NCBI RefSeq assembly: GCF_003171515.1
Contig: NC_089391.1
Coordinates: 868,001 to 932,000, forward strand
Length of the DNA stretch: 64,000 bases
Reading direction: 5' to 3'
Source of the DNA: Pyrenophora tritici-repentis
Taxonomy: Eukaryota > Ascomycota > Dothideomycetes > Pleosporales > Pleosporaceae
The notes beneath the pieces were generated by a model. The model searched no databases, was not told where the DNA came from, and saw only the letters and a program-made list of their open reading frames with translations. This document shows positions 11,436-51,464 of this stretch, in pieces (position 1 is the stretch's first letter; each line of letters opens with the position of its first letter). The position numbers were made by a program, and so were the translations under genes.

Positions 11436-11591
11436 TGTAACGGTGGGATCGAGGAAGAGGGGGATTGCATTGTCTGAGTAGCTAGGAAGGAGAGCAGCTA
11501 TATATATGAATGTGGGATGTACGAAGTGTGGTAGCGAGAGCAGTACCCAACTTGTACCAGAATAGGTCTTGGCAGAGCCCAAACCGTTACA
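11436..11591 (-). repeat. Solo LTR (TGTAACG family) in the HET-ankyrin gene
   Basis: A 156-bp repeat starts TGTAACGG and ends CCGTTACA on the minus strand, flanked by a perfect 5-bp duplication TCTCC (11431-11435 and 11592-11596). TG...CA ends and a 5-bp duplication are typical of LTRs. A second copy lies at 62180-62332. It interrupts the ankyrin coding sequence after the codons for QGG. Confidence 0.85.
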
Positions 11592-14149
11592 TCTCCACCC
11601 TGCGAGTTGACGTTGGCGCCCTTATTGAGCAGCATCTTGACTGTCTGCTCGTAGCCTCTAGATAAAGCTGCCTGCAATGCGTTGCGGTAGCGTCCACCCT
11701 GCGCATTAACGTTGGCGCCCTTATTGAGCAGCATCTTGACTGTCTGCTCGTAGCCTCTAGATAAAGCTGCCTGCAATGCGTTGCGGTAGCGTCCACCCTG
11801 CGCGTTGACGTCGGCACCCTTGTCAAGCAGCATCTTAACTGTCTGCTCGTAGCCTCCGTGTGAAGCTGCCTGTAGTGCATTGCCGTAGTATCCACCCTGC
11901 GCGTTAACCTCCGCGCCCGCGTCGAGCAGCATCTTGACTACCTGCTCGTGGTTTCTAGCTGAAGCTGCCTGCAATGCGTTGCCGTAGTCTCCACCCTGCG
12001 CGTTAACCTCAGCGCCCTTATCGAGCAGCATCTTAACTGTCTGCTCGTAGCCTCCGTATGAAGCTGCCTGTAGTGCATTGCCGTAGTCTCCACCCTGCGC
12101 GTTAACCTTCGCGCCCGCGTCGAGCAGCATATTGACTACCTGCTCGTGGCCTTCCCGTGAAGCTGCCTGCAATGCGTTGCCGTAGTCTCCACCCTGCGAG
12201 TTGACGTTGGCGCCGCTGTCGAGCAGCATCTTAACTACCTGCTCGTGGCCTTCCCGTGAAGCTGCCTGTAGTGCATTACCGTACTCTCTACCCTGCGCGT
12301 TAACCTTCGCGCCCGCGTCGAGCAGCATATTGACTACCTGCTTGTGGCCTTCCCGTGAAGCTGCCTGTAGTGCGTTGCCGTAGTATCCACCCCGCGCATT
12401 AACGTTGGCGCCCTTATTGAGCAGCATCTTGACTGTCTGCTCGTAGCCTCTAGATGAAGCTGCCTGTAGTGCGTTGCCGTAGTATCCACCTTGCGCGTTA
12501 ACCTTAGCGCCCTTATCGAGCAGCATCTTAACTGTCTGCTCGTAGCCTCCGTATGAAGCTGCCTGTAGTGCATTGCCGTAGTCTCCACCCTGCGCGTTAA
12601 CATCGGCGCCATAGTTAAGCAGCAGCTGTACTACTGCCTCGTAGCCTCTGTATGAAGCCGTATAGAGTGCATTGCCAAAGTGTCCGCCTTGCACATTAAC
12701 GTCAGCGCCCTTGTCTAACAGCAGCTTCACCACCTCTTCGTGGCCTTCGTATAACGCCGCCTGGAGTGCGTTAACAACCCCTTTTGTCACCTGAACTACG
12801 CTTCCGCATCGTTGCAGAAGAAGAATCATGATTTCCCTTCCAATTCTCACGTTTTCTGCAGCGGCTTTGACCACTGCTTCTGTGACCTCGACTTCACTTC
12901 TGCGCTTTTGAAGAAAAAGACGCATAATATCCCCCCCACTTTTTTCGTTTCCTACTGCGCCTTTGATCATATCCTCTGACAATGGTACCTCGAGTCCTCG
13001 CCGCATCAGAAAATGTTCTACCCCTCTTATATTAGATGTTTCTACAACTTCTAAGAAAGACGTAGCATTTCGAGAGGCAAGATCCTCTAAGAGCTTTGGC
13101 ATTGTCTCGTAGGAAACATCTGATGGTCCAAATAAGAACAAAGCAGTATCGCAGATGACTTCCTGAAGACCTTTCGTATAGTCTGGACGTAGGTTATTGT
13201 TGTCGTAAGCATCTGAAGATATGCCTAGTAAGGCGTAGACGTTGTCTCGTGGGTCACTCGCTTTGCTTTCGCTGAACTTCAGCAAAAGATTGTACAGGTC
13301 TCTGTTCTCGCTCCACCAGGACTCTTCTCGTAGGCGGCCAGGCATAATGTCTAAGACAGCTTGACAATGACGTTCTGGTTTGATGCCTATGAGCGACGGA
13401 GCAAGGGCAAAGGTACGTGCTCTGACAGACTTGGTGCCACACCAGATACTTGCTTTCTTCGCATTGGCTATTTCCTGTAAGATCCAGACTCTTCTGAACC
13501 ACGGTCTCCTTAAGAGCAGATCTAAGCCTCTACGTGACTCAAAACCTGGATCTTGAGGAACTAATAGCCAGAATGTGGTCCACTGTGCCAGATCCCAGTG
13601 TCTGTGCCCATGCATCGAACTGTATTCTTCCAGTCGCCGAAGAGACTCCATAAGGATTTTAGTCTCTTCTGTGGCTTGACCTAGCCAGACAATCACCTCC
13701 TCCGCTTGCGAATAGATCTTGCACATCTGTTCAACTTGATGTCCTCGCTCTCTTTCGTTATCTTGATCGATACAAATAGCGTCAACCCAAAGTACTCTGT
13801 CTATACCTTCCGAGCGAAGATGTTGAAGTGCTGAGTGTAGGTTTTCAGTAACATTAAGTGTCTTTCCATTGACTTTCACAGTGGAAGTCTTGTCCGTGCC
13901 GCCCCAAGTATACGATAAAGCATCGTAGGGAACAGTGTCGGCACCATCGAGGTAGGCCTGATACAGCATACACTCAATAACCTGCCCTTTGCCTCCTAGT
14001 AACTGCAACAGTCGGAATGCGGGACGCTCGAGGTCGATCGGTTTGTAGATAAAGATGTCCATCTGTACCCTGCACTGAACTACTTCGTCATTAGCTAGAG
14101 GGTCCAAGGCTAAGAGGCTAGAGTCTAGCCTACCTATCTCTAATAGCAT
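11498..14149 (-). CDS. HET-domain / ankyrin-repeat protein
   Basis: A large leftward frame; ATG at 14149 or 14062 (MDIFIYKPIDLERPAF, which matches the usual start of this family better). The HET domain covers roughly residues 40-190 from 14062: YDALSYTWGG, WVDAICIDQDN, QMCKIYSQAEEVIVWLG. HET proteins trigger vegetative-incompatibility cell death in filamentous fungi. Twelve 33-residue ankyrin repeats follow (about residues 430-820), with consensus GNALQAASxxGYEQTVKMLLDKGA and unusually high similarity to each other. The last repeat stops at a solo LTR (11436-11591). The final 30 residues, beginning DVTVWALPRP, are translated from that LTR, so the natural C terminus is lost. Whether the truncated protein works cannot be said. 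The N-terminal HET part has no stop. Confidence 0.85.
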   Translation of the reverse strand: MLLEIGRLDSSLLALDPLANDEVVQCRVQMDIFIYKPIDLERPAFRLLQLLGGKGQVIECMLYQAYLDGADTVPYDALSYTWGGTDKTSTVKVNGKTLNVTENLHSALQHLRSEGIDRVLWVDAICIDQDNERERGHQVEQMCKIYSQAEEVIVWLGQATEETKILMESLRRLEEYSSMHGHRHWDLAQWTTFWLLVPQDPGFESRRGLDLLLRRPWFRRVWILQEIANAKKASIWCGTKSVRARTFALAPSLIGIKPERHCQAVLDIMPGRLREESWWSENRDLYNLLLKFSESKASDPRDNVYALLGISSDAYDNNNLRPDYTKGLQEVICDTALFLFGPSDVSYETMPKLLEDLASRNATSFLEVVETSNIRGVEHFLMRRGLEVPLSEDMIKGAVGNEKSGGDIMRLFLQKRRSEVEVTEAVVKAAAENVRIGREIMILLLQRCGSVVQVTKGVVNALQAALYEGHEEVVKLLLDKGADVNVQGGHFGNALYTASYRGYEAVVQLLLNYGADVNAQGGDYGNALQAASYGGYEQTVKMLLDKGAKVNAQGGYYGNALQAASSRGYEQTVKMLLNKGANVNARGGYYGNALQAASREGHKQVVNMLLDAGAKVNAQGREYGNALQAASREGHEQVVKMLLDSGANVNSQGGDYGNALQAASREGHEQVVNMLLDAGAKVNAQGGDYGNALQAASYGGYEQTVKMLLDKGAEVNAQGGDYGNALQAASARNHEQVVKMLLDAGAEVNAQGGYYGNALQAASHGGYEQTVKMLLDKGADVNAQGGRYRNALQAALSRGYEQTVKMLLNKGANVNAQGGRYRNALQAALSRGYEQTVKMLLNKGANVNSQGGDVTVWALPRPILVQVGYCSRYHTSYIPHSYI

Positions 14150-15436
14150 AGAGCTACAGAGTTCGACGAGGGTAGTGGGAAGAGGACATGTACCAAGCAC
14201 TCAACTAGTAAAGATAAGGATTACTTGTGTTTGTTGGAGTATTGGTTAGGGAATACGCATGAGCTGAACAGCACAAGGCAGAAGCATGGCGGGGTAGCAG
14301 AGCTGAAGGCACGAGATGATTAATATGGCAGTGCAAGGCTGAACCTACGCAGCACTCAGTGCGCCAGCCGAAGCCTGCCATGCCCGCTATGTGAGACCTG
14401 CCCACCTTGTTCTTTGGATGCTACATAATTATAATATATTTCTTTTTGATGAACTGCAGCAATATTCGGCTATGGCTTGGTATGTATATCGGTTGCGATG
14501 TGCTCGAGGGCACGAGAACGTGGTGGGTCGGACAAGGGATCAACGGCGGGCCTGCGGGGCTAGAGGGCGGCGCGACAGTTCGTCTCTGTAACATAAAAGC
14601 TTTCGCATTAGCTATAGTCGTGTATTACACGCGTCTCACAACAGCTGTGTCGGAAATTAGTGGCGGTTTTGATGCTGTGTGTGTTCATTGACGCGAGCTA
14701 TATGCCAGGGCCTTCAAACCTAGCCCTGTTCCTTATCCGAACCGGTTTTCAGGTCTCCTAGAGCGCTTGGCAAAGGCGCCGTACAGCCACAGCCACAGAC
14801 CTAGCGTCAGCAGGGGTAGATCACAGCTAAGCTACTTTAAGCTAGGTGTGCCCTATCTAACGTTGGGAAGTCATCAACATGCGCCACGCCTATTTTGAAA
14901 GGCATACGGGACTGGCATAGCGCCGAATTCTTTACAATAGGATACAGTAAACCATGAGTGTGCTAGTGCAGGCCCTTGCCTGCCAAGCTACGTTAGCATA
15001 TCTCCCCAGCTTGGGCTCATTTTGAGAGATCTCCTGCTTCGCACAACGGGGCTCCCGGCATGCTCGTTCCCATATCGGAGTAATCTCTCGAGCCTGGAGA
15101 ATCGATCATTCTTAGTTGCGCTCTCTTCACAACCCTCCGAGCTCTTAATTGCTTCTTGAAATCGCTAATAAACAAGGGGGTATCGTTAAAGAGTCGATTG
15201 ACAGCATTGACGAAACGATCGGCAGTACGACTAACATAGCAGCGATTCATGTCGGATGCTAATGTGCTTAAAGAGCAATAGCCATACAATCATGGTGGAT
15301 TGATAGTAGCTTTATAAACCTGCAAATGGGAGGCGCCGAAGCCCCGAACCGCCAACCTGTCTCGGGAGATAGTGTGTCTCTTCACCTAGGGACGCACCTT
15401 ACGTTGTAACCTTCCGTATCTCTACTTGGTCCCCTA
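14150..15436. other. Intergenic upstream of the HET-ankyrin gene
   Basis: No gene recognised; the 90-codon leftward frame at 15017-15289 has no recognisable domain. It contains the repeated block at 14558-14635. Confidence 0.4.
14558..14635 (+). repeat. Second copy of the block at 1789-1866
   Basis: Diverged direct copy of 1789-1866. It lies about 400 bp upstream of the HET-ankyrin start; the first copy lies about 270 bp upstream of the F-box/ankyrin pseudogene. Confidence 0.55.
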
Positions 15437-32479: not shown

Positions 32480-33528
32480 ATTACACACCTTTAGGACAGC
32501 GACGCGATAGCTTAAGCCCGAGGCAATAAGCTAGCTGATGCTCCTAACTAGATAAAGTTAAATAGACTTACCGCTGCCAATTAGGGTGTTATTACTAAGT
32601 ATCTAGCTGCTCTTAAACTGCTAAAGGCAGCTATAAAGCGATTAGAAGGCCGCGGCGCTTCTAGTGCCTATGGAGCAATTGCTAAAGTAATCCCTGTCTT
32701 TAAGTATCTTTTAAAGGAGTACGAGGATCGTGTTGCTACATACAAGGCGGTGGATTACAACGCTCACAATGAGGCGCTAGAGGACCATTTGGAGATCAAT
32801 TTGAGAGCTGCACGGACGAAGCTCTGCGAGTACTACAGTAAACTTAACGACTCGCTAGTATACTACGCAGCTACTATACTCTATCCGCGCTATAAGAAGC
32901 TTTGTGACGTCCTTTGGGCGGATAAGCCAGCGTGGCTTTATAGCAATAACTAGGCTTTTCTCTAACTGTGGGCTCAATACAACACGCCGCGCGCAACGCC
33001 TACAACTACGATACCTACCGCCGCCCACCGCTCAAACGAGATCGATAACTATCACGGGGCCAAACAGTAGTCGCAAGGTAAGAACGTAGTTGTAGTGTAA
33101 AGGTCTATGTACAAGAGCACGGGGAGGATATGTACCGTAGGGTAGCAGGCGCTAGGCCAAGATAGGGATGGGGGCACGTGACCTACAGAGCGCCGAGTTG
33201 GTGCTGTGACAATAACGTTATTAACAGCTATATTAATCCTAAGCATTTGCCTACAACTAACAGCGAGATGGACGAGTATTAACGATGGAAGCAGGGCGAG
33301 CCAATCGCCGCAGACGGTAGTCACGACGCCAATAACCTAGTAGAATACTAGGTAGCTTTGCGCGATTAATATCCGAACCTTAGCAGGCTTGCGATAGATG
33401 TATTGTCAATACCTGCTTCAAGCTGCGACTGCGAGCGCATGTTTAGTGAGCTTAGTGATCTATTAGAACCGTGGAGAAGGAAACTTAGGCCCTAGTTGCT
33501 GGCCGCCATGCTATTGTGGTGTAGTTAC
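32480..33528 (+). pseudogene. hAT transposase relic, C-terminal half
   Basis: Translates in pieces similar to the hAT transposase at 53.3-56.0 kb: NKLADAPN, then GVITKYLAALKLLKAAIKRL, IPVFKYLLKEYEDRV, EINLRAARTKLCEYY and LVYYAATILYPRYKKL. The hAT dimerisation block follows (NLSRLAIDVLSIPASSCDCERMF, then SDLLEPWRRKLRP). Many stops are expected-Trp or Gln codons changed to TAG/TAA. The N-terminal half is missing, and the C-terminal end is cut by the insertion of the histone-bearing hAT element at 33529. Confidence 0.75.
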
Positions 33529-33837
33529 GCTGGCAAATGGGTCGGGGTGTGGTTGGGGTTGGGTTAGAAATTTTGCGACCCCAACCCAACCCCAACCCAT
33601 TTGTCAGCGCCAAGCTTAGGGTTGGGTTGGGGTTGGGTTGGGGTCGCACGGACCATGGGTTAGGGTTGGGTTATAGTAAAAAAATTGCAAGATGTATAAT
33701 ATAGATTTCAATAAAAGAAAAGTTTATATAGTATCACAGTAGATTAACACAGTGTAGCATTAACTAGTTTCATTTATAATATACAGAGGCTTCGCCAGCT
33801 AGCATTTAAGCACGTGTATCTAGATATATCTTATAAT

Positions 33838-34410
33838 CTAGAGAAAAGCTAGTAACTCGCGCGCAAAGTAGCGCCTAGCCAATTGAGAATCCTTCTCTTG
33901 AATAGTAACCCTCTTTGCGTGAATAGCATTGATGTTGCAGTCTATAAAAGTTATTAAATGAAAAATAGTATAGGGTAGATAGACTATACCCTCAAAATAA
34001 CCAACTAAGAAAGCTTCTGTAGCTTCCTGAAGAGCTTCGATTGCAGATCGTTGAAAGCGGATATCGGCCTTGTGCACCTGTGCAAATTCGCGCACTACGC
34101 GGGAAAAGGGGAGTTTTCGCAAGAGTAGTTCAAAACCTCTCTGGTATCTCTTGATTTCCCGTAATGCGACAGCTAAGCTAAATTAGAAAATAGCTGTGAT
34201 AAACGACTGTGATAACCTACTGCCGGCCTTAAACTTGCGCTTCTTCTTAACAGCTACAGGTGCCTTTCGCGTAGACTTTCCTGCTACTTGACGTCTAGCC
34301 TTACTAGCAAGGGCCTTCTGAGCCGGCTTGCCGCCAGTAACTGTCTTGCCATCAGGACCACCCCGGCCGGCTTTACCGGTGACCTTAGGCCGTGGTTTTG
34401 TCCTTGCCAT
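33838..34410 (-). CDS. Divergent histone H3
   Basis: Three exons: 34410-34221, 34172-33990 and 33941-33838 (158 codons), with two 48-bp introns (34173-34220, 33942-33989) that both restore H3 sequence exactly at the joins. The tail starts MARTK like canonical H3 but is longer and rewritten (contains [16 protein letters not shown] and [18 protein letters not shown]). The fold region is complete: [77 protein letters not shown]. It ends [10 protein letters not shown], longer than usual. Loop 1 has canonical H3 length, so it does not look like CENP-A. It would assemble with H4 into nucleosomes in the nucleus. Canonical H3 is about 136 residues. No stop or frameshift, and it lies inside the hAT ends. 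Confidence 0.9.
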
Positions 34411-34920
34411 TGCGTAGTAGAGTAGATGATGAACGTAGGCGACGTATGTGATTAACTACTGTGATAAATGTGGTCGACAATTAAGAAAGTAGTAAGCTGA
34501 AAGAGTTAGGTAGCTGGAAAGTTTGGGCGACGGCAATTTCCCGATTTCCGCACTAGTAAAGGCAGCAGCGCACGGACTGCATGACGTAATTTGCTGTTTC
34601 ACGATCGCATACAACCATTTCTGTTGCAAAATCAGTAGCGAGCATATCATACAAACGTGTTAAACTGCTGTGATAAACGCCGAGCTCGCGCATGCGTGCA
34701 GCCCAAAAATGAAGGAATCATCGATGTGTTGATCATTTTGGGTAATTTCCGCGTTTTCGCGCTAGCGCAGGCAGCAGCGCACGGACCATTTCTAGGTGAG
34801 CATAATGCTGTCTACCCATTTCTCCAGCCCCTGACGCCCAGTAACTCCCAACACCTAATAACTCTCTTTACTACATTGAAAACACCCCATTTACAACAGC
34901 GCATTATCACAGTCCCCGCC
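34411..34920. promoter_or_regulatory. Divergent promoter of the histone H3 and acidic-protein genes
   Basis: 510 bp between two divergent start codons. It holds three copies of CTGTGATAAA / TTATCACAG (34459-34468, 34668-34677, 34904-34912). It also has a direct repeat of about 45 bp: ATTTCCGC ... CTAG ... GGCAGCAGCGCACGGAC at roughly 34535-34580 and 34745-34790. The same motif also occurs in introns of this element. Binding-site function is inference. Confidence 0.5.
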
Positions 34921-36124
34921 ATGCCTGTCGCGAAAGAGCAAGTCGGCGACGTACCTGAAGGCCTAGTTCCAGCCATCAAACTTGAACCTCCGCCTGGGTT
35001 CGAACAAGATGAGTGGGAGCAGCTTACCGATGTAATAATCACAGCCATTTATCACAGCTTATGCTAATATAAGCAGGGATTTGCGTGTGAAGCTGACGAG
35101 ATTGACGGTATCTTAGATCAAAGAGGTAGTGGGGGTTCACGAAAAGGCCGACCTATCAATTTGAGCGTCCCCTATACTGGCTCTCTGAGTGGTAGCGCCC
35201 GTGCTATTGCTCAACGTGAACGCAAAGCTCTTTTCGATAAAGAGGAGAAGGTACTTGAAAGCGTTAGAACAGCCGACCGCTCCGCGAAGTACCAACTGAA
35301 GAAATCGCTTTTGCAACAGCCTAAGTATAAATTAGCAAATAGTGCTAGACAGGCTAAGCTGCTAGAGAAAGAGTGGGATATACTTTCAGAGAAGCGGTTT
35401 ACCCAGAAAAAGTCTGGTAAGTTATCACAGCTGTTTATCATAGACATCTGCTAATAGACTATAGCTGAATGGCTAGAGACAAACCTAACTCATGTGCATC
35501 GTAAATGGGATGCGATCACTAAGCAGGTGGATATGAGAAAACACGAGATCACGATTGCGAAAGTGCTTAGCAAAGATGACAAGCCCACCCATGACATTAG
35601 TGGTAGAGGAATAGCAAGAATTTACGGCTCAGGTGGTGTTTTGCAAAAGATTCTTCGAAAGACCTATCAAGAAGGATTAGCAAAGCTTAACAACAACGAC
35701 TTTGAGAGCAAGGAGGCTAAGAGAGAGTTTGAGAAGTTCGTGGAGGAACTTACACCTGATGAGATGAAAGTCGTAACTGATAATGACTGGCAGTAAGTTT
35801 ATCACATCCTTTTATCACAGAGATACTAATATAATAAGGCAACGGGAGCCACCTAGCATTCTCGACTTACTTGGTGACGCTGATATTGAGCTGGAGGGTG
35901 ATAAGCCGTACGTTAAAGGTGACGATAGCGATGAGTGTGAAGAAGAGGTTGACTATGACTCTGATCTTGAGGAGCATTTCAATTCACTTGAAGACGAGTA
36001 CGAGGATGACGACCAGTGGGCTGCTGTACAGAAGCAGGCAGCGCTTGAGGAGTCTGAGGAATCTGAGGACTCTGAGTTTGAGGGGTTTCCGGATTCTGAT
36101 GCCGCTTCTGAGTCTGATAATTAG
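34921..36124 (+). CDS. Acidic-tailed protein of the histone-bearing hAT element, unknown
   Basis: Four exons: 34921-35031, 35077-35416, 35465-35792 and 35839-36124 (354 codons). Introns of 45, 48 and 46 bp have GT...AG ends and CTAAT branch sites, and frames join cleanly. The N-terminal part is short and neutral. The middle is basic and helical (RERKALFDKEEKVLESVRTA; SARQAKLLEKEWDILSEKRF; KILRKTYQEGLAKLNNNDF). The C-terminal 95 residues are very acidic (DDSDECEEEVDYDSDLEE; LEESEESEDSEFEGF). No family recognised. A long acidic tail beside a histone gene recalls histone chaperones, but that is only inference from composition and position. No stop or frameshift. Confidence 0.75.
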
Positions 36125-36652
36125 AGTTTTAGGCTAAGACACTTTCAAGCATTGAGGGATAGTAAGCAGTTATCACAACCAATTAACACGGATTATTGCG
36201 CCATATAATCTTAACTTAAGATTGTGATCTGTCATTTATGCAGATTAATATCCGTGCACTCCTGACGATCTCTGTGTTTACTATGAGGCATTAAAAATGA
36301 TATTCCGCTAGTAATATGCCAAGGTTTCAAGTTAAATTACAGGCGTCATAGCGCAAGCAAAGCTAAGAGGAGCGTGAGAAGCCTTGAGTCCTACATCCAA
36401 ACTTAAACTTCTCAACTTTTTCCTATTGTGTGCTACTACTATTAATGCCTTATTCTACTACTTTCTAGAAGCGATGGACATAGCTGCACAGTCTATTGAG
36501 CTTATGCCTAATCCTACTAATATTGAATTTCCGGAGGACCTCAACTGTTTAAAAATCAATTCTCCACAGGTTACAAAGGGGGGTGACAGGAGAACGATTG
36601 GATTAGTGAAATATCCAAATAATCGTTTTCTGCAAGATTATAGTGTAAGTGA

Positions 36653-39119
36653 GATCTTAGGACATGGACAGCGTGGTGGAGTAATACTAGCTGGGGTATA
36701 AACCCTAAAAATAATAACCCACGATGGAACTCTCCTACTCGCTATGGCACAGTATGGTTACGATTTGGAGAAGCTGCTGAGCTTCGAACTGGCCACCCCT
36801 ACGTGTTCTGCTACAACTGTAGTCTTGCACTCCAGCATCCAAATCTAGGTGGTATTGGGACAAAGCACCTTATTACTCATCTTAAAACAAAAAGCTGTCG
36901 AAATGTCCTTACTCCTATTCATAATGAGGCAGACTTATCGGCCTCTACTCTATCCCAACGTCAACAAAGAAACAGTACTTCATCAATACCAGCTTACACT
37001 ACTACTACCTTTGAAAAGGAGCTTGTACGGGTAGTAATCGACAGCAACTGGTCATTCCGAACAGTTGAACGACCATCTTTCCATCGATTTCTTCGGTTCC
37101 TTCGACCAGATACTGTGATAATTAGTCGTTGTAAATTCAAGACGATATTCAAGAGTCAACATGAGGAAGCAAAAAGGTCTATCCTTCGAGATCTTGGAAA
37201 ATCAACAAAGATCTCAATCGCCTTAGATGCCTGGTCTGCAGCTAATCACCTCTGCTTTCTTGCGGTAAAGGGTTACTACATTAACAAAGACTGGAAACTT
37301 CAGGAAAAGCTACTTGACTTTCTCCCTATGCGCGGCAGGCACACCGGTACTTCTATGGCAGACGAGGTACTGCATATTCTTCTGGATACAAAGACCAAAA
37401 CCCAGCTTCTAGCTATTACTTGTGATAACGCTAGTAACAATAGCGTACTTGCTCGCACTCTCCAGTCTAAACTCCAAGAAGTCGACATTCAGTGGAGTGC
37501 CAGAGAAAACACTATCCCTTGCCTTGCCCATATTATCAACCTCGTTGTCCAGGATATTATCCAACACCTTCGGCTAGCAGCAACTACAGAGTTAGGAGCA
37601 AGGGATACCCTACAGAGACGTCATATACAGGACATTGAGACGCATATTTCAGTCCCAAATTCCCTTCGCAAGGTATTTCGCTTTTAACACATTCATTTAT
37701 CACATACTAATAATAGACTAGATAAGGGCGATTTGTATCGCTATTGACGTATCACCTCAACGCTTTGAGCGGTTTATTGCGGTACAACAACATCTACCGC
37801 CAAAGGAGCGATTATCTGTTATCCGCGACGTGAAAACCCGATGGAACTCAACATACGACATGTTAGAGCGCGCGCTCAAAATCCAAAAATATATTGATGA
37901 ATGGCTTAAACAAGAAATCTTGCTAAGGCCAGGTAGTCACCTGGATAGCTCTCTAGACAACAATCAAATGGCTGAGATTGATTTCCGGGATCTTAAACGC
38001 CTCCGCTTATCTTCGACTGAGTGGCATCATCTCGAACTCGTTACTGAGATGCTTAAACGGTTTAAAACAGCAACTAGCTTCCTCAGCCAGAACGAGAAGC
38101 CCCAGATTCAGTATATTTGGTTAATGTACAATCGACTGTTTGATTTCTTGGACAAAATGTCAGAGGACCTAGATGAGGATGAAGAAAATCAAGATGATAG
38201 GGAATGGCTAGACGTAGTACGAGCTGCAGCTGACAGGGTTCGTCTAAAACTGAGCAAGTACTATTCGAAGACAGACGCAGAACGTGGGTTCTTGTTTAAT
38301 TGTGCCACTATCCTTGATCCAACGCAGAAGCTTACAGCATATGAAGTATGATTATCACAGCTATTTATCACAGTCACGCTCTAATTACGCTTATAGGACG
38401 ATTCATGGGAGCCACAGTACAAGCATCTCTACCGAGGCCAATTTCTTGCTTACCTTGATCGTTATGATAATACGGACGGGAGAGGTTCAACCCCAGGCTC
38501 TAGCATAGTCAAAAGGAGGTCACTTGGGAATGAGTGGTTCAGAAAGCCAGCTCCTCCCCCTACATCAGCGTTAAACAGCTTTTCTTCCCAGAACTCTTCA
38601 CTAGTAGAATCAGACAAGACAACTGGCCCAACCCGCCAAGAAGGAGAGTCCTACCTTAGTACTGCCTGTGTAATGACAGATGACTCTTTCGATATTCTAG
38701 AGTGGTGGAAGACGAACGAGCCTACCTACCCACGACTATCCCAAGTGGCGAAGGATATACTAGCAATACCAATTGCTCAGGTTGGGGTTGAAAGAGTTTT
38801 CAATGTTGCTAAGGATGTTATTGGTAGTCGGAGGCACCGACTATCTGCCCGGACAATACAGCAGATAATGGTTCTTAAGGATACAATATCTCAAGAGGAA
38901 GAACAGGGTCTAGACTACCTAGTTGCTCAATTAGGGGAGGATGGAGAGCCAATTGACGAGGTTAATGATCTTTTTGAGCTTCCAGCCTCGTTAGAGCATA
39001 CCTTCGATATAGATGAGGAGAACCAGACTACAGAAGAAGAGTCGGAGGAAGAGGTCCAGGAGGAGCGTCAATTGCCACCTCGAAAGCGCCAGCGTCCTCA
39101 GCGCTACCGTGATAATTAG
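36653..39119 (+). CDS. hAT transposase of the histone-bearing element
   Basis: Resolved exons: about 36661-37672, 37722-38345 and 38397-39119, with introns of 49 and 51 bp. The first exon start is not settled: the frame opens at 36653, and an upstream exon (perhaps 36474-36640, MDIAAQSIELMP) must join through an intron I could not fix. In order: a BED-type zinc finger (VWLRFGEAAEL ... FCYNCSLAL ... HLITHLKTKSC), the catalytic region (ISIALDAWSAANHLCFLAVKGYY; LAITCDNASNN; CLAHIINLVVQ), TRWNSTYDMLERAL, and the C-terminal dimerisation domain (LEWWKTNEPTYPRLSQVAKD; IPIAQVGVERVFN; RRHRLSARTIQQIMVLKD). The tail is acidic then basic (PPRKRQRPQRYRDN). No internal stop in these exons, so it may be functional. 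Confidence 0.8.
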
Positions 39120-39207
39120 CTGTGTTAATATATCTCGTTTTATGTATCTACTATATCATCAACGTGTACACATTATCTTAATTAAGTGTTGTTCCGTTAA
39201 AGTACCC

Positions 39208-39394
39208 AAAAAATATAACCCAACCCCAACCCAACCCAACCCAACCCAAGCCCAACCCTACCACTTGGTCTGTGCGACCCCAGCCCAGCCCTAACCCATG
39301 GTCTGTGCGACCCCAACCCAACCCTAACCCATGGTCTGTGCGACCCCAACCCAACCCCAACCCAAGACTGGGTATACCCAACCCATTTGCCAGC
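39208..39394 (-). repeat. Right-end subterminal repeats of the hAT element
   Basis: Three tandem-like units of about 35-40 bp containing GGGGTCGCACAGACCA and GGTTAGGGTTGGG (one unit diverged) lead to the terminal GCTGGCAAATGGGTTGGG. One matching unit lies at the left end near 33620-33675. Arrays of this kind are typical transposase binding sites in hAT elements. Confidence 0.75.
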
Positions 39395-39672
39395 GTAGGC
39401 AGCCTCTCTTCTGACTATTGATGCTATCCCTCTACCACAGTATATAGAGGTAGTTCACGGCCTATCTAAGTAGGTTTCGGTTATAGATAAGGAAGAGGGG
39501 GCCTTCCTCCTAAGCGAGGGAGGGATGTGGTGGAGCAAGTGGGAATGAACGGACCCGAAGGGCGCTCGGACAGTGGAAACCATATGGGATCGCGAAGGAT
39601 CCCATCGAACATCACTCAGACACCTACACACCCACACACTCAACAATCTAATCTCTAATACTTGCATCGAGC

Positions 39673-45644: not shown

Positions 45645-46235
45645 ATGCCTAAAGAACCGAGGACCCGTGCGTCTCGCAAGAAGACAACCACCGAAGAGCG
45701 TTACGAACGCCTCCGTCGTGTCGAGCTTTCTGGACGAGAAATGCCGTTTCGCTGTGAGCGTTGCGAAAAGAATAACCTGCGGTGTTTTGTGGATACGGTG
45801 TCTGGTCGTTGTGCGGGTTGCATCTCAGCGCGATGCGACTGTGAGTTGTTTGTTCCTGAAGAGGAGTGGGAAAAGGTGGAACAAGAAAAGCGCGATAAGG
45901 AGCTCGCGTTGCTACGTTTGGAAGAAGAGGTTGCCCGGGCTCGTCGTGAGCTGGCTGAGATAAGAAATCGTGAGCTGGCGTTTGCTCGTCGCGATCGAAA
46001 ATTGTTGGATGCCTCGGAGCGGGCTCAGTCGTCGGAAAGTGGCAGTACTGTCGCCGCGTCTTCTTCTATCGGTTCTACCGCTGATCCGGGCTGGTCACAG
46101 GCCAACAACCTTCTTGATCCTTCGCTTGATCAAATTCTTAATGACTTCTTCCTTGAGGCCTCTGCCTCTGATCTCGATCCGTTTTCCTCGGCTGGTTCTT
46201 CTGGTATTGCGCCAGGAGTTGCCGACAGTTTGTGA
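45645..46235 (+). CDS. Antisense Zn2Cys6 / coiled-coil protein inside the Gypsy element
   Basis: 196 codons from ATG 45645 on the strand opposite to gag-pol. After a basic start (MPKEPRTRASRKKTTTEERY) comes a cysteine cluster with spacing C-X2-C-X6-C-X8-C-X2-C-X6-C (CERCEKNNLRC ... CAGCISARCDC). That is the spacing of fungal Zn2Cys6 binuclear-cluster DNA-binding domains. A heptad-rich coiled coil follows (EKVEQEKRDKELALLRLEEE and on), then a Ser/Asp-rich, acidic C terminus like an activation domain. It overlaps the last 98 bp of pol tail to tail. Transcription would start from, or near, the 3' LTR in antisense. A regulator of the element or its host is inference; the open frame with this composition is unlikely by chance. 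Confidence 0.75.
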   Translation: MPKEPRTRASRKKTTTEERYERLRRVELSGREMPFRCERCEKNNLRCFVDTVSGRCAGCISARCDCELFVPEEEWEKVEQEKRDKELALLRLEEEVARARRELAEIRNRELAFARRDRKLLDASERAQSSESGSTVAASSSIGSTADPGWSQANNLLDPSLDQILNDFFLEASASDLDPFSSAGSSGIAPGVADSL

Positions 46236-49200
46236 GATTGGTATCTGGTTCCCATGTATTTTCGCTGTCTGGGTATCCTAACCATTTGACTAGGTATTCC
46301 ATGCCGTTGTCCACAACTCGATGTGTGACAATGTTCTCGACTTCAAATTCGTTTTCTTCTTCCGTTTCGTAGTGGAAGGTTTTCTGTAATGGCGTGTCTG
46401 GGTGTGCTGGTTCCAAGAGGCTTACGTGGAACCTAGGATGTATTCTAGCGTCTGGTGGAAGGTCAAGTGTGTATGTAACTGGCCCTTTCCGGTTAAGAAT
46501 CAAAAATGGTCCGACTTTGACGTTGTCGAGTCCTTTGCTTGGTCGCTTCGTGCGAAGATTCTTTGTGCGTAGATAAACTTTATCCCCCCTCTTTAGCTGA
46601 GGTGCCATTTTTCGTTTCTTGTTGACATATGAAATGCTTTGACGTTGTGCTGTCTCGAGTTTGTTCTGTAGCAACTCATGTACTGCCTTCAGCTCCTCGG
46701 CTGTGGCGATAGCTGCTTCCGTTTTCTGACTTGGAAGTGTGCGTGTAAAGAGATTTGGGTGTCTCCCGTGGTTTGCATAGAACGGAGTCTGTCCCGTAGA
46801 CTCTGAAAGCTTGTTATTGTATGCCATTTGTGCCATTGGCAGAAGCGAAACCCAGTTGGTTTGCTGATGGTTGACGTATATCCTGAGATATGCTTTCATG
46901 GTTCTGTTCGTTCTTTCTGTCTGTCCGTCCGTCTGCGGATGAAACGCTGTTGATAGCTTGCGTTTTGTACCAATTGCGGCCAAAAGTGTCGTCCAAAAGT
47001 TTGAAGTGAAGAGCTTGTCTCTGTCGCTTATGATTGACTTTGGTATGCCGTGATGTCTGATGATTCGATCGTTGATGATGTGAGCCAGATGTACTGCCGT
47101 GAAATCGTTTCTGAACGGGATGTACTCTGCTTGCTTGGTGAATCGATCGATTACAACGAGTATTGCGTTGTATCCTGTGTTTGTCGCTGGGTCTCTTGAG
47201 ACTGGTAGACCTGTGACAAAGTCCATAGAGATGTCTGCCCAAGGTTCCGTGGGTAGTTCTAGTGCTTGCATCTCACCGTAAGGTGCATGCGTGTCGTGTT
47301 TGTTCTTCTGACAGTCTGCACATTTCGTGATGAATGAGGTAACCTTTTCCTTCATTCCTGGGAACTCGTAGTTGCGTCTGATGAGTTCCATTGTTCTGGT
47401 AATGCCCGGGTGACCGTGTACAGGGTCGTCGTGGTGTTGTTGAATAATTGCCTCTTGCAATTCTTCCGGTACATTGTTTCCGATGTGGAGGATGGCGTTC
47501 AGCGTTTTTGTTGGTCCTAGCGATCCGTCCTTGTTAACCTTGAGTATCGCGGTGTCGATGACTTCCTTGGTGCCTGCGATATCTGGTCTTCGGCTGAGAG
47601 CGTCTGCTCTGCCGTTCTCTTTTCCTGGTGTATACACAATCTTGAACTTGTATTGTCCGAGTAGTTCTGACCATCTTACTTGTCTGCGGTTGAGTACTTT
47701 GGTGGTCGTAAAGTTCACTAGATTTTTGTGATCTGTGTATATCGTAAGTTCCGAGCAGCTTTCTGCGTATACTCTCCAGTGTTGTAAGCATGCGACAATA
47801 GCTAGTAGCTCCTTGTCGTGAACGTCGTATCGTTCTTCTGGTCCTGAGAATTTGCGAGAGTAGTAGGCGATGGGGTGCCATTTGCCTTCGTGCAATTGAC
47901 TTGCGCATCCGCCTAGCGCGAGATCCGATGCGTCGGTCTCAAAGCGTAATGGGTGTCCTGCTTGGAATATTCGAAAGCATGGTGGTTCTATGCTTGCTTT
48001 CTTAAGCGTTTGGAATGCGTTCTCTGCTTCCTTGCTCCATTTAAAGGGTACGTCCTTTCTTGTGAGTTTTGTCAAAGGGATGGCGATGTCTGAGAAGTCC
48101 TTGATGAACTGTCGGTTGAAGTTCAAGAATCCTAAGAAGGACTGTATCTGTACAACTGTTGTCGGTGTTGGCCAATCCTTGATAACCTGAATCTTTTCTT
48201 CGCTCATTTGTACTCCGTCCGCTCCTACTACATAGCCTAAGAAGTTGACCTTAGTCTTGTGAAATTCACACTTCTCTGGTTTGAGTCGGAGGTTGAACTG
48301 CTCAAGGGCCCTTAGTACCGTCTTGACATGTTCCACATGGTCCTCTAAAGTCTCGGAGTAGACGAGAATGTCGTCTAGGTAAGCTATGACAAAGATGTCT
48401 AGATGTGCTCTCAACACGTTGTTGATGAGTTCCTGAAATGTGGCTGGGGCATTCGTGAGCCCAAACGGCATAACTGTGTATTCGTAGTGTCCGTATCTTG
48501 ATCGGAACGCCGTTTTCCACTCCTCACCTTTCGCTATGCGAATCAGGTGGTATCCATCTCGAAGATCTAATGCTGTAAAGATCTTTGCGCGAGATAATCG
48601 ATCCCGTAGTTCTGTAATGTTCGGTAAGGGGTATCGATTCTTGATTGTGATGTCGTTGAGCTTGCGATAGTCTACACATAGTCGTAGTTTTCCGTCTTTC
48701 TTCGGGACAAACATGATTGGATATCCTGCTGGTGACTGCGATGGTCGGATATATTTTTTTGCTAGACTTGTCTTGATGTAGTCGCGTAACGTGCTCAATT
48801 CTTTTTCCGATAGTCCGTATATTGGGCCGAAAGTCGGTTTCTTTCCTTCCTGTAGGACAATCTTGTGGTCCCAGGGTTGGTGCTTTGGCAATGCTTGTTC
48901 ATCTGCCACTTCCCGGAATAGATGTTCGAATTCTTTGTATTCTTCGGGAATCTCAGGAGTTGCGCGTTTCTCCAAAACTCTAGTCTGTCGACCCGGTGGC
49001 TCCGTTCCGGCGTCTGCTGAGTCGGACCCTTGTTTCTTAAGGCCGTCCTTTGTCGAGGCTCGCTTTTTCTTTGCGATGTTATTCAGTTTCCTCTCATCTA
49101 CCATCGTACTCTGACAATGCGTAGGCTGGCTTGTGGTTGCGTCCGTTCCACAGCACTCAAATGAGAACGTCTTCGACTTCCAGTCGATCCGTGGGTTGTG

Positions 49201-49617
49201 TTCTCGTAACCAGGGAAGTCCTAATATGATGTCGTGGGTAGCTAGTCCGAAGACATCTAGGTCTATCTTCTCTTGGTGTCCTTGGATGTTGAGCGTCACT
49301 TGTCTGACCTCATGGGTGATCTCTTGTTCACCTGGCATTGGCTCTCCGTTGGCCACATGTAGTGGGTAAGCTTCTTGTTTCCGTAGTGGCTTCAGTCCGG
49401 CTGAAGACGCTGCGTGCGCTGAAACGTAGTTGGCTTGTGATCCCGAATCTACTAATGCCTTCATCCACCTCCCTTCAAGCTTCACCTGGAGCTTGATGAG
49501 GTCTAAGGAGTTTACTGAGTTAATCTCCTTGCCGGGCCGTTCTGGGCCGGGCGCTGGTCTAAAAAAGCCTGATTTCCAAATCCATGGAATCCTTTGGCTA
49601 TCGCATGAAGGTCGCAT
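46138..49617 (-). CDS. Gypsy Pol polyprotein with chromodomain
   Basis: Open frame of 1159 codons, expressed as a fusion to Gag by -1 frameshift at 49560-49566. Domains with approximate positions: aspartic protease KALVDSGSQANYVSA (56); reverse transcriptase with TALDLRDGYHLI (354) and catalytic YLDDILVYS (414); RNase H with YTDHKNLV (627). Integrase has an HHCC zinc domain (HGHPGITRTMELIRR ... CADCQKNK, 732-770) and a DDE core (ADISMDFVTGLP, 797; IISDRDKLFTSNFW, 869). A C-terminal chromodomain follows (IVTHRVVDNGMEYLVKWLGY, about 1095-1125), which would target integration to modified histones. Reverse transcriptase before integrase marks Gypsy. No stop. Confidence 0.95.
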   Translation of the reverse strand: MRPSCDSQRIPWIWKSGFFRPAPGPERPGKEINSVNSLDLIKLQVKLEGRWMKALVDSGSQANYVSAHAASSAGLKPLRKQEAYPLHVANGEPMPGEQEITHEVRQVTLNIQGHQEKIDLDVFGLATHDIILGLPWLREHNPRIDWKSKTFSFECCGTDATTSQPTHCQSTMVDERKLNNIAKKKRASTKDGLKKQGSDSADAGTEPPGRQTRVLEKRATPEIPEEYKEFEHLFREVADEQALPKHQPWDHKIVLQEGKKPTFGPIYGLSEKELSTLRDYIKTSLAKKYIRPSQSPAGYPIMFVPKKDGKLRLCVDYRKLNDITIKNRYPLPNITELRDRLSRAKIFTALDLRDGYHLIRIAKGEEWKTAFRSRYGHYEYTVMPFGLTNAPATFQELINNVLRAHLDIFVIAYLDDILVYSETLEDHVEHVKTVLRALEQFNLRLKPEKCEFHKTKVNFLGYVVGADGVQMSEEKIQVIKDWPTPTTVVQIQSFLGFLNFNRQFIKDFSDIAIPLTKLTRKDVPFKWSKEAENAFQTLKKASIEPPCFRIFQAGHPLRFETDASDLALGGCASQLHEGKWHPIAYYSRKFSGPEERYDVHDKELLAIVACLQHWRVYAESCSELTIYTDHKNLVNFTTTKVLNRRQVRWSELLGQYKFKIVYTPGKENGRADALSRRPDIAGTKEVIDTAILKVNKDGSLGPTKTLNAILHIGNNVPEELQEAIIQQHHDDPVHGHPGITRTMELIRRNYEFPGMKEKVTSFITKCADCQKNKHDTHAPYGEMQALELPTEPWADISMDFVTGLPVSRDPATNTGYNAILVVIDRFTKQAEYIPFRNDFTAVHLAHIINDRIIRHHGIPKSIISDRDKLFTSNFWTTLLAAIGTKRKLSTAFHPQTDGQTERTNRTMKAYLRIYVNHQQTNWVSLLPMAQMAYNNKLSESTGQTPFYANHGRHPNLFTRTLPSQKTEAAIATAEELKAVHELLQNKLETAQRQSISYVNKKRKMAPQLKRGDKVYLRTKNLRTKRPSKGLDNVKVGPFLILNRKGPVTYTLDLPPDARIHPRFHVSLLEPAHPDTPLQKTFHYETEEENEFEVENIVTHRVVDNGMEYLVKWLGYPDSENTWEPDTNLTNCRQLLAQYQKNQPRKTDRDQRQRPQGRSH

Positions 49618-51464
49618 TCTTTGCTAAGGCACGTTTGCCAGTTGGGTTGTTGACATTCCCAAGCGTCTCCTTCATCGTATTCTTTTAGCCATACTGTTTG
49701 CATCTGATCAATTTCTTCGGGGTTGTCGTGACCTGGGAAGTATGTTTTTTCCCTTTTGTCCCATAGGTGTATTGGGCATAGGTCGTTTTTGCAGTCGAAG
49801 AATTGCCACTTGCAGCGGTACGATCGTTTGGTTTCTTCTGGGAACCATCCTGATCCGGACTTATCCGAGTAGTGTACTCTGCAATGGTCGTGAATGCATG
49901 TGACCCATGATAACTTCTCATGTTCTGGGTTCCTAGGGTCCATCCAGTAGTCGTATTCTTTTGATCTACTGATGTCCTTGGCCTTTCTCTTGTGGCCGTG
50001 TTGGAAGGTCTTCCAATCGTTCCTGGTCTGGCAGAGTTCGTCGTAGATCTCTTGCTTCTCTTCTTCCGAGATTGGCAACGTTGGTTCTTCCCATGATCGG
50101 ATTGCGTCTTCGATCCAGCTTAGTTCCCATGTTGTTGGTAGGAACTCCAATATTTCGGTTGAAACGTTTTCCTTGTTTCGTTGTACTTCTAGTGACAATC
50201 GGTAGAAGTCCTGTCGCATAGCAGCCATGATGCTAGGTTCCTCGTAGGCGTACTCGATATCAGCCTTGTTGAGGTGTCGTAGTAGCTGGTTGATCTGTCC
50301 TGCGAGCTTGTAGAACTCTTCTTCCTGTACATAAGGTGTGGATGGCCTGTTGACTTCTTCGAATGTGGCCATCTTGCCGAATTTGGTCTGGTCGATTTCC
50401 GTAGCCTCTAAGTTCTTGGACTCATCTTCGAGCATATCGTACTCCGAAGTGGGCTCTTCTTCTGAGTCTGATTCCACGAGTGTGAGGTTATCCAATCCCA
50501 AAACGCTTTCCTGCGTGTTGATTTCGATGGTTGGTTTGGATATGACATTCCATGTCTCGTGTCGCTCAGTGGGTACTGCTTTGTGGATAACGTTGAGTTG
50601 TCTAACCACTTTGTTCTTGCTGTGGCAGTCCCTAGCCATGTGACCTTTCTTGTCACAATTATAACAAGTGATCTCCTTCTTGTTATATGGCTTCTTCTTG
50701 TCATTCCTTCCGAAACTCTTGCCTTTGTTGATGTTGTCCAGTTGCATTGCATCAGGGTCATGCCAGTTGTTACCGGCGGAGGGTACAATACCTCCGGGTG
50801 TCGTCCGATATCCTGGTTTCTTCTTGAAGAATCGTCCCTTTGTGCGTTGCACTGACTGGTTGGCTCTAACCGGTCGGATTTCCTGCTGCAATTCGTAGAG
50901 TGCGTTGTCGATACGAATTGATTCTCGGATGAGATCCTGTAGGTTGTTGATTGCGACGCCGCTTCGCATAAGCTCTTCTTTGACTCTTTCCTTGAGTCCT
51001 TGTCTGTACATAACCCTTAATGCCTTGTCGTCCCAGTCGGTCTTCAGGGCGTGTCCCTGGAAGACACTGGCGTAGTCGGCGACTGATTGGGTTTGTTTGA
51101 GCTGTTGGATTGCACGATCTGCCTTGGATTCTTCGTTGATGACTCCGAATTGCTGTCTAAGCTTGTCTTTGAAGGTTGGGTGGTCTTCAAACATTCGTTC
51201 AATATCGTCGTCGTCATCGTTGTCGTCCATGTATTTGTTGAGGTAAGGCTTGATCCAGGTGGCGGCAGTTCCTCGCATGTAACTTGCCATGAGCAGTCCA
51301 CGATCAGTAGGGTCGACCTTCTCATCTTCAAACCTGAAGAAGAGATCGAACTGGAGAATCCAGTCTTCGAGCTTGTGTCGATCGCCGTGAAATAGATCGG
51401 GTCTGGCCACCTTGGTGCGGCTTGACGAAGTTTCGTTAGGTGTGTTCATCGGGGTGTCACTCAT
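49512..51464 (-). CDS. Gypsy Gag protein
   Basis: 650 codons from the ATG at 51464 (MSDTPMNTPNETSSS). A retrotransposon gag domain lies in the first 200 residues (FHGDRHKLEDWILQFDLFF; GTAATWIKPYL; LRQQFGVINEESKADRAIQQ), with a CCHC knuckle CYNCDKKGHMARDC at about 268. A long Trp/Glu-rich C-terminal part of about 350 residues follows, unusual in length for Gag. The frame overlaps pol by 106 bp, and the slippery site TTTTTTA is in the overlap. No stop. Confidence 0.9.
   Translation of the reverse strand: MSDTPMNTPNETSSSRTKVARPDLFHGDRHKLEDWILQFDLFFRFEDEKVDPTDRGLLMASYMRGTAATWIKPYLNKYMDDNDDDDDIERMFEDHPTFKDKLRQQFGVINEESKADRAIQQLKQTQSVADYASVFQGHALKTDWDDKALRVMYRQGLKERVKEELMRSGVAINNLQDLIRESIRIDNALYELQQEIRPVRANQSVQRTKGRFFKKKPGYRTTPGGIVPSAGNNWHDPDAMQLDNINKGKSFGRNDKKKPYNKKEITCYNCDKKGHMARDCHSKNKVVRQLNVIHKAVPTERHETWNVISKPTIEINTQESVLGLDNLTLVESDSEEEPTSEYDMLEDESKNLEATEIDQTKFGKMATFEEVNRPSTPYVQEEEFYKLAGQINQLLRHLNKADIEYAYEEPSIMAAMRQDFYRLSLEVQRNKENVSTEILEFLPTTWELSWIEDAIRSWEEPTLPISEEEKQEIYDELCQTRNDWKTFQHGHKRKAKDISRSKEYDYWMDPRNPEHEKLSWVTCIHDHCRVHYSDKSGSGWFPEETKRSYRCKWQFFDCKNDLCPIHLWDKREKTYFPGHDNPEEIDQMQTVWLKEYDEGDAWECQQPNWQTCLSKECDLHAIAKGFHGFGNQAFLDQRPAQNGPARRLTQ
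49560..49566 (-). other. -1 frameshift heptamer between gag and pol
   Basis: On the minus strand the gag frame reads GCT TTT TTA, giving T-TTT-TTA, the X-XXY-YYZ type site. Slipping back one base converts QAFLDQ to QAFFRP and enters the pol frame, which is offset by -1. A GC-rich stretch follows, but no clear stem was worked out. Confidence 0.75.

What the first reader, a model, noticed from the sequence alone, without database searches (positions are those of the whole stretch)
33529..39394. A hAT transposon that carries its own divergent histone H3 gene
Seen: between matching inverted ends with hAT-type subterminal repeats there is an intact, three-exon H3 gene with full histone fold, rewritten tail and extended C terminus. 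It is divergent from an acidic-tailed protein gene and followed by an apparently intact hAT transposase. Known: hAT elements normally encode only a transposase, and H3 genes are conserved host genes. Inferred: the element captured H3 and uses a private nucleosome variant, perhaps with its own chaperone, to shape chromatin on the element, evade silencing or RIP, or mark integration sites. I know of no described system like this.
Basis: partly seen in the sequence, partly recalled or inferred. Interest (0 to 1): 0.93.

Follow-up and report, generated by a model that had tools for sequence, protein, structure and literature searches.

The report
Jumping gene carrying its own histone
A fungal DNA transposon really does carry a divergent histone H3 gene, as was published for this fungus in 2013; what looks new is that the histone belongs to an older family with its own changes at the contact that joins two H3 molecules in a nucleosome, so a private nucleosome is testable but not shown.

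Summary
The window copy (33526-39397) is the long, three-gene 'H3L' hAT element of Pyrenophora tritici-repentis (Manning et al. 2013, PMC3538342). In this genome 33 of 33 detected left ends have the H3 gene beside them. The published readings (drift; recent transcript capture) look incomplete. (1) H3L-type histones from P. teres, Paraphoma, Alternaria, Massariosphaeria and unnamed samples group apart from H3 and CENP-A (100/97; 96/93 with the C-terminal tail cut). (2) In P. teres such a histone and the acidic-protein gene bear consecutive locus tags. (3) The family keeps most tested DNA-contact residues but changes two of four H3-H3' interface residues, N110 and Y130. (4) K9 is missing in 6 of 8 rows. 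(5) The element bears 11 paired sites, TTATCACAG-N4-TTATCACAG, nearly confined to it. Best explanation: a long-resident, functional H3 variant that forms its own nucleosomes and makes chromatin favourable to the element, with the acidic protein as partner. Chromatin function is inferred, not shown. One heavily RIP-mutated copy shows that the element is not immune to RIP.

The parts
33526..39397 (+). whole hAT element (long form, 5872 bp)
   Evidence: 17-bp TIRs and copies with the same ends
33526..33542 (+). left terminal inverted repeat TACGCTGGCAAATGGGT
39381..39397 (-). right terminal inverted repeat ACCCATTTGCCAGCGTA
33543..33680 (+). left subterminal GGGTTGGG-type repeats
   Evidence: repeat families D1, D5, I1
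39208..39380 (-). right subterminal repeats, inverted to the left ones
   Evidence: repeat families D1, D2, I1-I3
34221..34410 (-). H3L exon 1 (tail)
   Evidence: splice model
33990..34172 (-). H3L exon 2 (most of the histone fold)
33838..33941 (-). H3L exon 3 (end of fold, RRYF... C terminus)
34411..34920 (.). shared 510-bp region between the two divergent start codons, with a 46-nt direct repeat (34532-34577, 34741-34786)
34921..36124 (+). central acidic-tailed protein gene; exons 34921-35031, 35077-35416, 35465-35792, 35839-36124
   Evidence: relatives
36475..39119 (+). hAT transposase; exons ..-37672, 37722-38345, 38397-39119; first exon uncertain
33731..33752 (+). paired site, 3' of H3L
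34194..34215 (-). paired site TTATCACAG-N4-TTATCACAG in H3L intron 1 (exact)
34446..34467 (-). paired site 5' of H3L
34891..34912 (+). paired site 5' of central gene
35036..35057 (+). paired site, central intron 1
35422..35443 (+). paired site, central intron 2
35799..35820 (+). paired site, central intron 3
36170..36191 (+). paired site upstream of transposase
37684..37705 (+). paired site, transposase intron (37673-37721)
38352..38373 (+). paired site, transposase intron (38346-38396), exact
39107..39128 (-). paired site at the transposase stop codon

Best explanation
The element is the published H3L hAT transposon of Pyrenophora tritici-repentis (shown). Its histone is not a recently captured passenger but a long-resident gene of this transposon lineage (supported). 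I infer that H3L pairs with host H4 and, because two of the four residues of its H3-H3' contact are changed (N110, Y130), prefers to form H3L-H3L nucleosomes rather than mix with host H3. The acidic-tailed protein, made from the same divergent promoter region, would act as its partner in handling or deposition, and the array of paired TTATCACAG sites would mark element DNA for such a protein. Nucleosomes whose tail lacks the usual K9 context would carry less H3K9 methylation and keep the element expressed and mobile between sexual cycles. Element identity, family, residue changes and sites are shown by sequence; nucleosome formation, partnership, site binding and anti-silencing are inferred.
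For: 33 of 33 left ends have H3L beside them. Of 23 distinct copies whose H3L was read, 19 encode the identical protein, 2 have one missense change, 1 a one-base deletion, 1 is interrupted. All 10 short-form copies read keep H3L. H3L-type proteins from several Pleosporales and unnamed samples group together: 7 rows 100/97; 6 rows with the C-terminal tail cut off 96/93. P. teres CFE70_001393 (H3L type) and CFE70_001394 (central protein) have consecutive tags and the same listed contig length. R49, R53, K64, R69, R72, R83, R116, D123, L126 are kept in 8 of 8 rows, while 110 is N and 130 is Y in all 8. N110 occurs in the 9 H3L-type stretches and in 0 of the 260 other stretches that fit the pattern. 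L109, A110, L126, L130 are the interface cluster engineered to change H3-H3' pairing (PMC5626479 passages). K9 absent in 6 of 8 rows. 11 paired sites against a mean of 0.03 in 100 Markov controls; 256 genome hits against 2 with the reversed pattern. Published ESTs for H3L.
Against: No protein, ChIP or mutant data. R63 is lost in 4 of 8 rows, K79 in 3 of 8, and H113 is Y in one, so not every tested contact is kept. In plain globular identity 3 of 7 other rows (Alternaria, Massariosphaeria, P0067) are one or two points closer to host H3 than to Ptr H3L. The family was picked by its C-terminal signature, which includes position 130, so only N110 is independent of the choice. Dhillon et al. find Ptr copies closest to ordinary H3 in their tree. 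The central protein has no Pfam match above cut-off, no convincing solved relative and a low-confidence model; chaperone rests on its acidic tail and its place. One copy is heavily RIP-mutated. Two relatives keep a K at position 9, and tail alignment is uncertain. The paired site contains TGATAA and also occurs in a DDE_1 element and two related places, so a host factor may bind it. dN/dS between species could not be computed.
Confidence: 0.37

Rival explanations
1. Passenger. H3L was captured by a hAT, is transcribed, and drifts without function; copies are identical only because the element spread recently. This is close to the published view.
For: 19 of 23 copies encode one protein and copies are near identical, so their agreement shows recency, not selection. 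Manning et al. suggest drift; Dhillon et al. call it a recent capture of a transcript.
Against: The protein is only 70% identical to host H3 in the globular part and has two introns where host H3 has, as I read it, one coding intron elsewhere. Relatives in other genera share its diagnostic residues and group with it. The central-protein gene has the next locus tag in P. teres.
Confidence: 0.33
2. Global interference. H3L enters nucleosomes everywhere or soaks up host H4 and chaperones, loosening host silencing in general rather than marking the element.
For: 33 gene copies and published ESTs; histone fold and most DNA-contact residues kept. Manning et al. raise general chromatin effects.
Against: The changed H3-H3' interface argues against free mixing with host H3; the nearly confined site array suggests action on the element.
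Confidence: 0.17
3. Transposition cofactor. H3L and the acidic protein help transposase assemble on or excise the element, for example by wrapping its ends, and have no role in silencing.
For: The genes travel together, and the short form keeps H3L plus a fusion of central N terminus and transposase dimerisation domain, published as in frame.
Against: hAT transposases elsewhere are thought to work without a histone (recalled); the paired sites are spread through the element rather than gathered at its ends.
Confidence: 0.1
4. For the paired sites only: they are host GATA-factor promoter or enhancer sites, or remnants of a copied intron, unrelated to H3L.
For: CTGTGATAA contains TGATAA (GATA core recalled); 6 of 7 modelled coding introns hold the site, 4 to 11 bases after the 5' splice site; sites also 3' of a DDE_1 gene.
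Against: Five of 11 sites are not in modelled introns; the spacing is always exactly 4 (0 pairs at gaps 0-3 and 5-11); host H3 and CENP-A loci and 35,445 flank bases have none.
Confidence: 0.35

Closest known systems
H3L hAT 'transduplication' element of Pyrenophora tritici-repentis (Manning et al. 2013, PMC3538342; passages and section 20 part 1 of 2 read)
   Same: Same species by protein identity (99-100%), same three genes, a long and a short chimeric form, near-identical copies, H3L neither H3 nor CENP-A.
   Different: Not in the text that I read: relatives in other genera, the acidic protein's relatives, N110/Y130, the paired-site array, a RIP-mutated copy.
H3-carrying hAT elements of Pseudocercospora, Cercospora, Sphaerulina (Dhillon et al. 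2019, PMC6710886; parts 1-4 of 7 read)
   Same: hAT with H3-like cargo, 8-bp target duplications.
   Different: Reported as intron-less, RIP-inactivated, about 9.5 kb in P. fijiensis, without DNA similarity to the Ptr element. Whether their H3 is of the H3L type was not testable here.
Histone H3 variants and CENP-A
   Same: Histone fold, rewritten tail, altered C terminus.
   Different: H3L sits in a transposon, Ptr H3L lacks the loop residues seen in this genome's CENP-A, and the family has N110/Y130.
Engineered H3X/H3Y obligate heterodimers (PMC5626479; passages read)
   Same: Changes in the same interface cluster (109, 110, 126, 130).
   Different: Laboratory design that forces unlike pairs; H3L would be a natural change favouring like pairs (inferred).

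Membership tests
hAT transposon superfamily | 8-bp target site duplication | tested here: met
   Perfect in 13 of 21 stretches read; two of the 8 misses are opposed pairs of copies, and the window copy itself has none
hAT transposon superfamily | short terminal inverted repeats | tested here: met
   17 bp
hAT transposon superfamily | transposase with C-terminal hAT dimerisation domain | tested here: met
   PF05699, 74.4 bits against cut-off 21.4; the RNase-H-like domain is below its cut-off (19.9 against 27)
published Ptr H3L element | hAT with H3L, central ORF and transposase; about 5.6-kb and 2.3-kb forms | tested here: met
   Proteins 99-100% identical to Ptr entries; forms of about 5.87 and 2.59 kb by my end points; description
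histone H3 | H3-type histone fold with DNA-contact residues | tested here: met
   PF00125 109.6 bits for P0001; most tested contacts kept, R63 and K79 variable in the family
canonical H3 | conserved tail and H3-H3' interface (110 C/A, 130 mostly I/L) | tested here: not met
   tail rewritten, N110 and Y130
CENP-A | groups with CENP-A; longer loop 1 | tested here: not met
   groups apart from the one CENP-A row, itself on a long branch; no loop insertion in Ptr H3L, though one relative (P0069) has two extra residues there
histone chaperone (central protein) | recognisable chaperone domain or fold | tested here: inconclusive
   acidic tail only; no significant match
introner-like elements (definition recalled) | copies sit only as introns | tested here: not met
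   6 of 11 paired sites in modelled introns, 5 outside; one of the 5 (36170) could lie in an unmodelled leader intron

The most novel reading that the evidence does not exclude
A transposon lineage keeps a private nucleosome system: an H3 variant whose changed H3-H3' interface makes it pair with itself, a dedicated acidic partner, and paired DNA sites that direct the variant to element copies, giving chromatin that host H3K9 silencing cannot readily mark.
Probability: 0.15. Interest if true: 0.92.

Novelty: already known. Interest (0 to 1): 0.5.

Why it matters
The element is known, but its histone is told in print as a recent, drifting capture. If it is instead an old, constrained part of the transposon with its own tetramer interface, it would be a natural case of a selfish element writing its own chromatin, and a ready-made orthogonal H3 for nucleosome studies. 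The two interface residues make the idea directly testable in laboratory yeast.

Tried and rejected
Recent capture of host H3: set aside because of divergence, introns at other places and relatives in other genera. CENP-A: rejected. Accidental nesting: rejected. Introner family: rejected as the whole account. Motif strictly private: rejected; three listed places lie outside element copies. One (L012) is just 3' of a DDE_1 gene (E 3.6e-28), and the other two (L010, L011) share DNA with L012; the one open frame tested in each of L010 and L011 had no Pfam match.
Full report
What is there. The window lies in a 40.9-Mb genome of 41 contigs. Its H3L protein is 99% identical, and its central protein 100% (rounded), to entries named Pyrenophora tritici-repentis. 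The element runs from 33526 to 39397 with 17-bp inverted repeats and G/T-rich subterminal repeats. It holds three genes: H3L on the minus strand (three exons, 158 aa), a divergent gene for a 354-aa protein with an acidic tail, and a hAT transposase. Thirteen of 21 stretches read have perfect 8-bp target duplications; the window copy has none, which may reflect recombination between copies (inference). Just to its left lies the end of another hAT transposase (Dimer_Tnp_hAT, E 2.6e-11).

Already published. Manning et al. [quoted passage not shown]). Dhillon et al. 2019 describe H3-carrying hAT elements in Mycosphaerellaceae, RIP-inactivated, regard the Ptr event as recent, independent and a captured transcript, and find the Ptr copies closest to ordinary H3 in their tree (parts 1-4 of 7).

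I compared by coordinates the 33 left ends found in the genome (lower bound, 40 of 73 candidates scored) with the H3L matches (40 of 40 candidates scored): each of the 33 has an H3L match on its inner side, in three cases further off, as after an insertion. Of 12 close transposase copies found with one exon (150 of 413 candidates scored), 11 lie in such elements; the other (L009) is a fragment without H3L or central gene in the 6 kb read. The next transposases listed are at most 32% identical over that exon, so no close H3-free sister was found. H3L was read in 23 distinct copies of 33: 19 encode the identical protein, 2 have one missense change, 1 a one-base deletion, 1 is interrupted. The RIP-mutated copy is not among the 23; its H3L match holds stops. 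All 10 short-form copies read keep H3L, one of them with a missense change.

Older than published. Seven H3L-type proteins from outside this species share a C-terminal signature, RYY or a near form, in place of RRLRGER; P0067 and P0069 come from unnamed samples that I take for metagenomes. In a maximum-likelihood tree of 22 rows, 7 H3L-type rows form one side of a branch with support 100/97 and in 99% of 200 bootstrap trees. After dropping the Alternaria, CENP-A and Kluyveromyces rows and cutting off the C-terminal tail, 6 H3L-type rows still separate with 96/93 and in 95%; the root is not inferred, and the midpoint drawing puts Massariosphaeria next to H3. The canonical rows are a panel that I chose. 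By plain globular identity, 3 of 7 other H3L-type rows are slightly closer to host H3 than to Ptr H3L. H3L introns fall at FKAG|T and FE|D, while I read one coding intron in host H3, after Q19. The central protein has relatives in P. teres, P. seminiperda, Boeremia, Exserohilum, Parastagonospora and unnamed samples (22 proteins at E <= 0.01, Ptr entries included). P. teres CFE70_001393 is an H3L-type protein and CFE70_001394 a central protein; both list a contig of 5,608,903 bases. I read this as the same gene pair; hAT ends there were not seen.

What the histone has changed. In 8 H3L-type rows aligned with host H3, R49, R53, K64, R69, R72, R83, R116, T118, D123 and L126 are kept in all 8, while position 110 is N and 130 is Y in all 8. 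R63 is lost in 4 and K79 in 3. K9 is absent in 6 of 8, K14 and K18 are kept in 8 of 8, and K27 is lost only in Ptr (tail alignment uncertain). Over 269 stretches that fit a pattern in the 215 proteins held, N110 occurs in the 9 stretches of the 9 H3L-type proteins (two of them Ptr variants) and in 0 of 260 others; Y130 occurs in one other. Position 130 belongs to the signature by which the family was picked, so N110 is the independent mark. L109, A110, L126 and L130 form the hydrophobic cluster of the H3-H3' interface, and changing them alters which H3 pairs with which (PMC5626479, passages). That H3L prefers itself is my inference. That H3K9 methylation drives fungal silencing is recalled knowledge.

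The paired sites. The element has 11 sites of TTATCACAG-N4-TTATCACAG with at most 4 mismatches in all; pairs at gaps 0-3 and 5-11 number 0; the other 58 kb of the window has 1 (0 at up to 3 mismatches); 100 Markov sequences average 0.03, maximum 1. All 11 exact 9-mers of the window lie in the element. Genome-wide, 256 places match with at most 2 mismatches against 2 for the reversed pattern; of the 100 places listed, all but three lie, by their coordinates, in element copies or the L009 fragment. The three are a place 3' of a DDE_1 transposase gene and two places that share DNA with it. Nine sites, in introns or upstream of genes, point with the gene; the two at 3' ends point against it. Two central-protein relatives from unnamed samples, 48% and 41% identical to the Ptr one, appear to carry an unspliced intron whose translation (KLSQLFIT, KLSHYIIT) is what this site would give in the same intron; their DNA was not seen. 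The motif holds a GATA-type core (recalled), so a host factor is possible.

The partner. The central protein is mainly helical in a model of mean pLDDT 68.9 and pTM 0.34 from 12 sequences, with no significant family or fold match. In the six proteins counted, Ptr included, 32-41 of the last 90 residues are D/E. Chaperone is a guess from charge and gene order.

Not immune to RIP. The copy on C1 (L045) differs at 281 of 5,859 aligned positions from the window copy; 228 are C>T or G>A, 182 of them at CpA or TpG.

Verdict. Observation confirmed; system already known; the family-wide interface change and the site array make a private-nucleosome mechanism testable.

Noticed in passing
L045 (G000:C1:7525700-7531640): One full-length copy with intact TIRs and target duplication is heavily RIP-mutated (182 of 281 changes at CpA/TpG), while 21 of 23 other copies read differ from the window's H3L gene by at most one base substitution.
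   Followed up: yes
L010, L011, L012: A DDE_1 transposon element (L012) and two places with related DNA also have one or two TTATCACAG-N4-TTATCACAG pairs.
   Followed up: partly
L010:2350-2750: About 185 bp directly before the exact paired site is a repeat with 40 further listed matches in the genome, none of which extends into the site.
   Followed up: no
window 34532-34577 and 34741-34786: 46-nt direct repeat (80%) in the shared promoter region between H3L and the central gene.
   Followed up: no
window 33370-33492: C-terminal end of another hAT transposase (Dimer_Tnp_hAT E 2.6e-11) just left of the element.
   Followed up: partly
window 11498-14197: 899-aa open frame with a HET domain and many ankyrin repeats.
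   Followed up: no
window 46141-49623: Gypsy-type polyprotein open frame with a C-terminal chromodomain.
   Followed up: no
window 5410-6321 and 7834-8895: DDE_1 transposase open frames.
   Followed up: no
G000:C7:1128564-1134700 and G000:C18:6395-12600: Two places each hold a pair of opposed H3L copies at the same spacing (outer TIR to outer TIR 5944 bp), suggesting a duplicated segment.
   Followed up: no
P0131: A second, 44% identical central-protein subfamily is recorded under P. tritici-repentis names but has no match above 51% identity in this genome apart from one short 56% stretch.
   Followed up: partly
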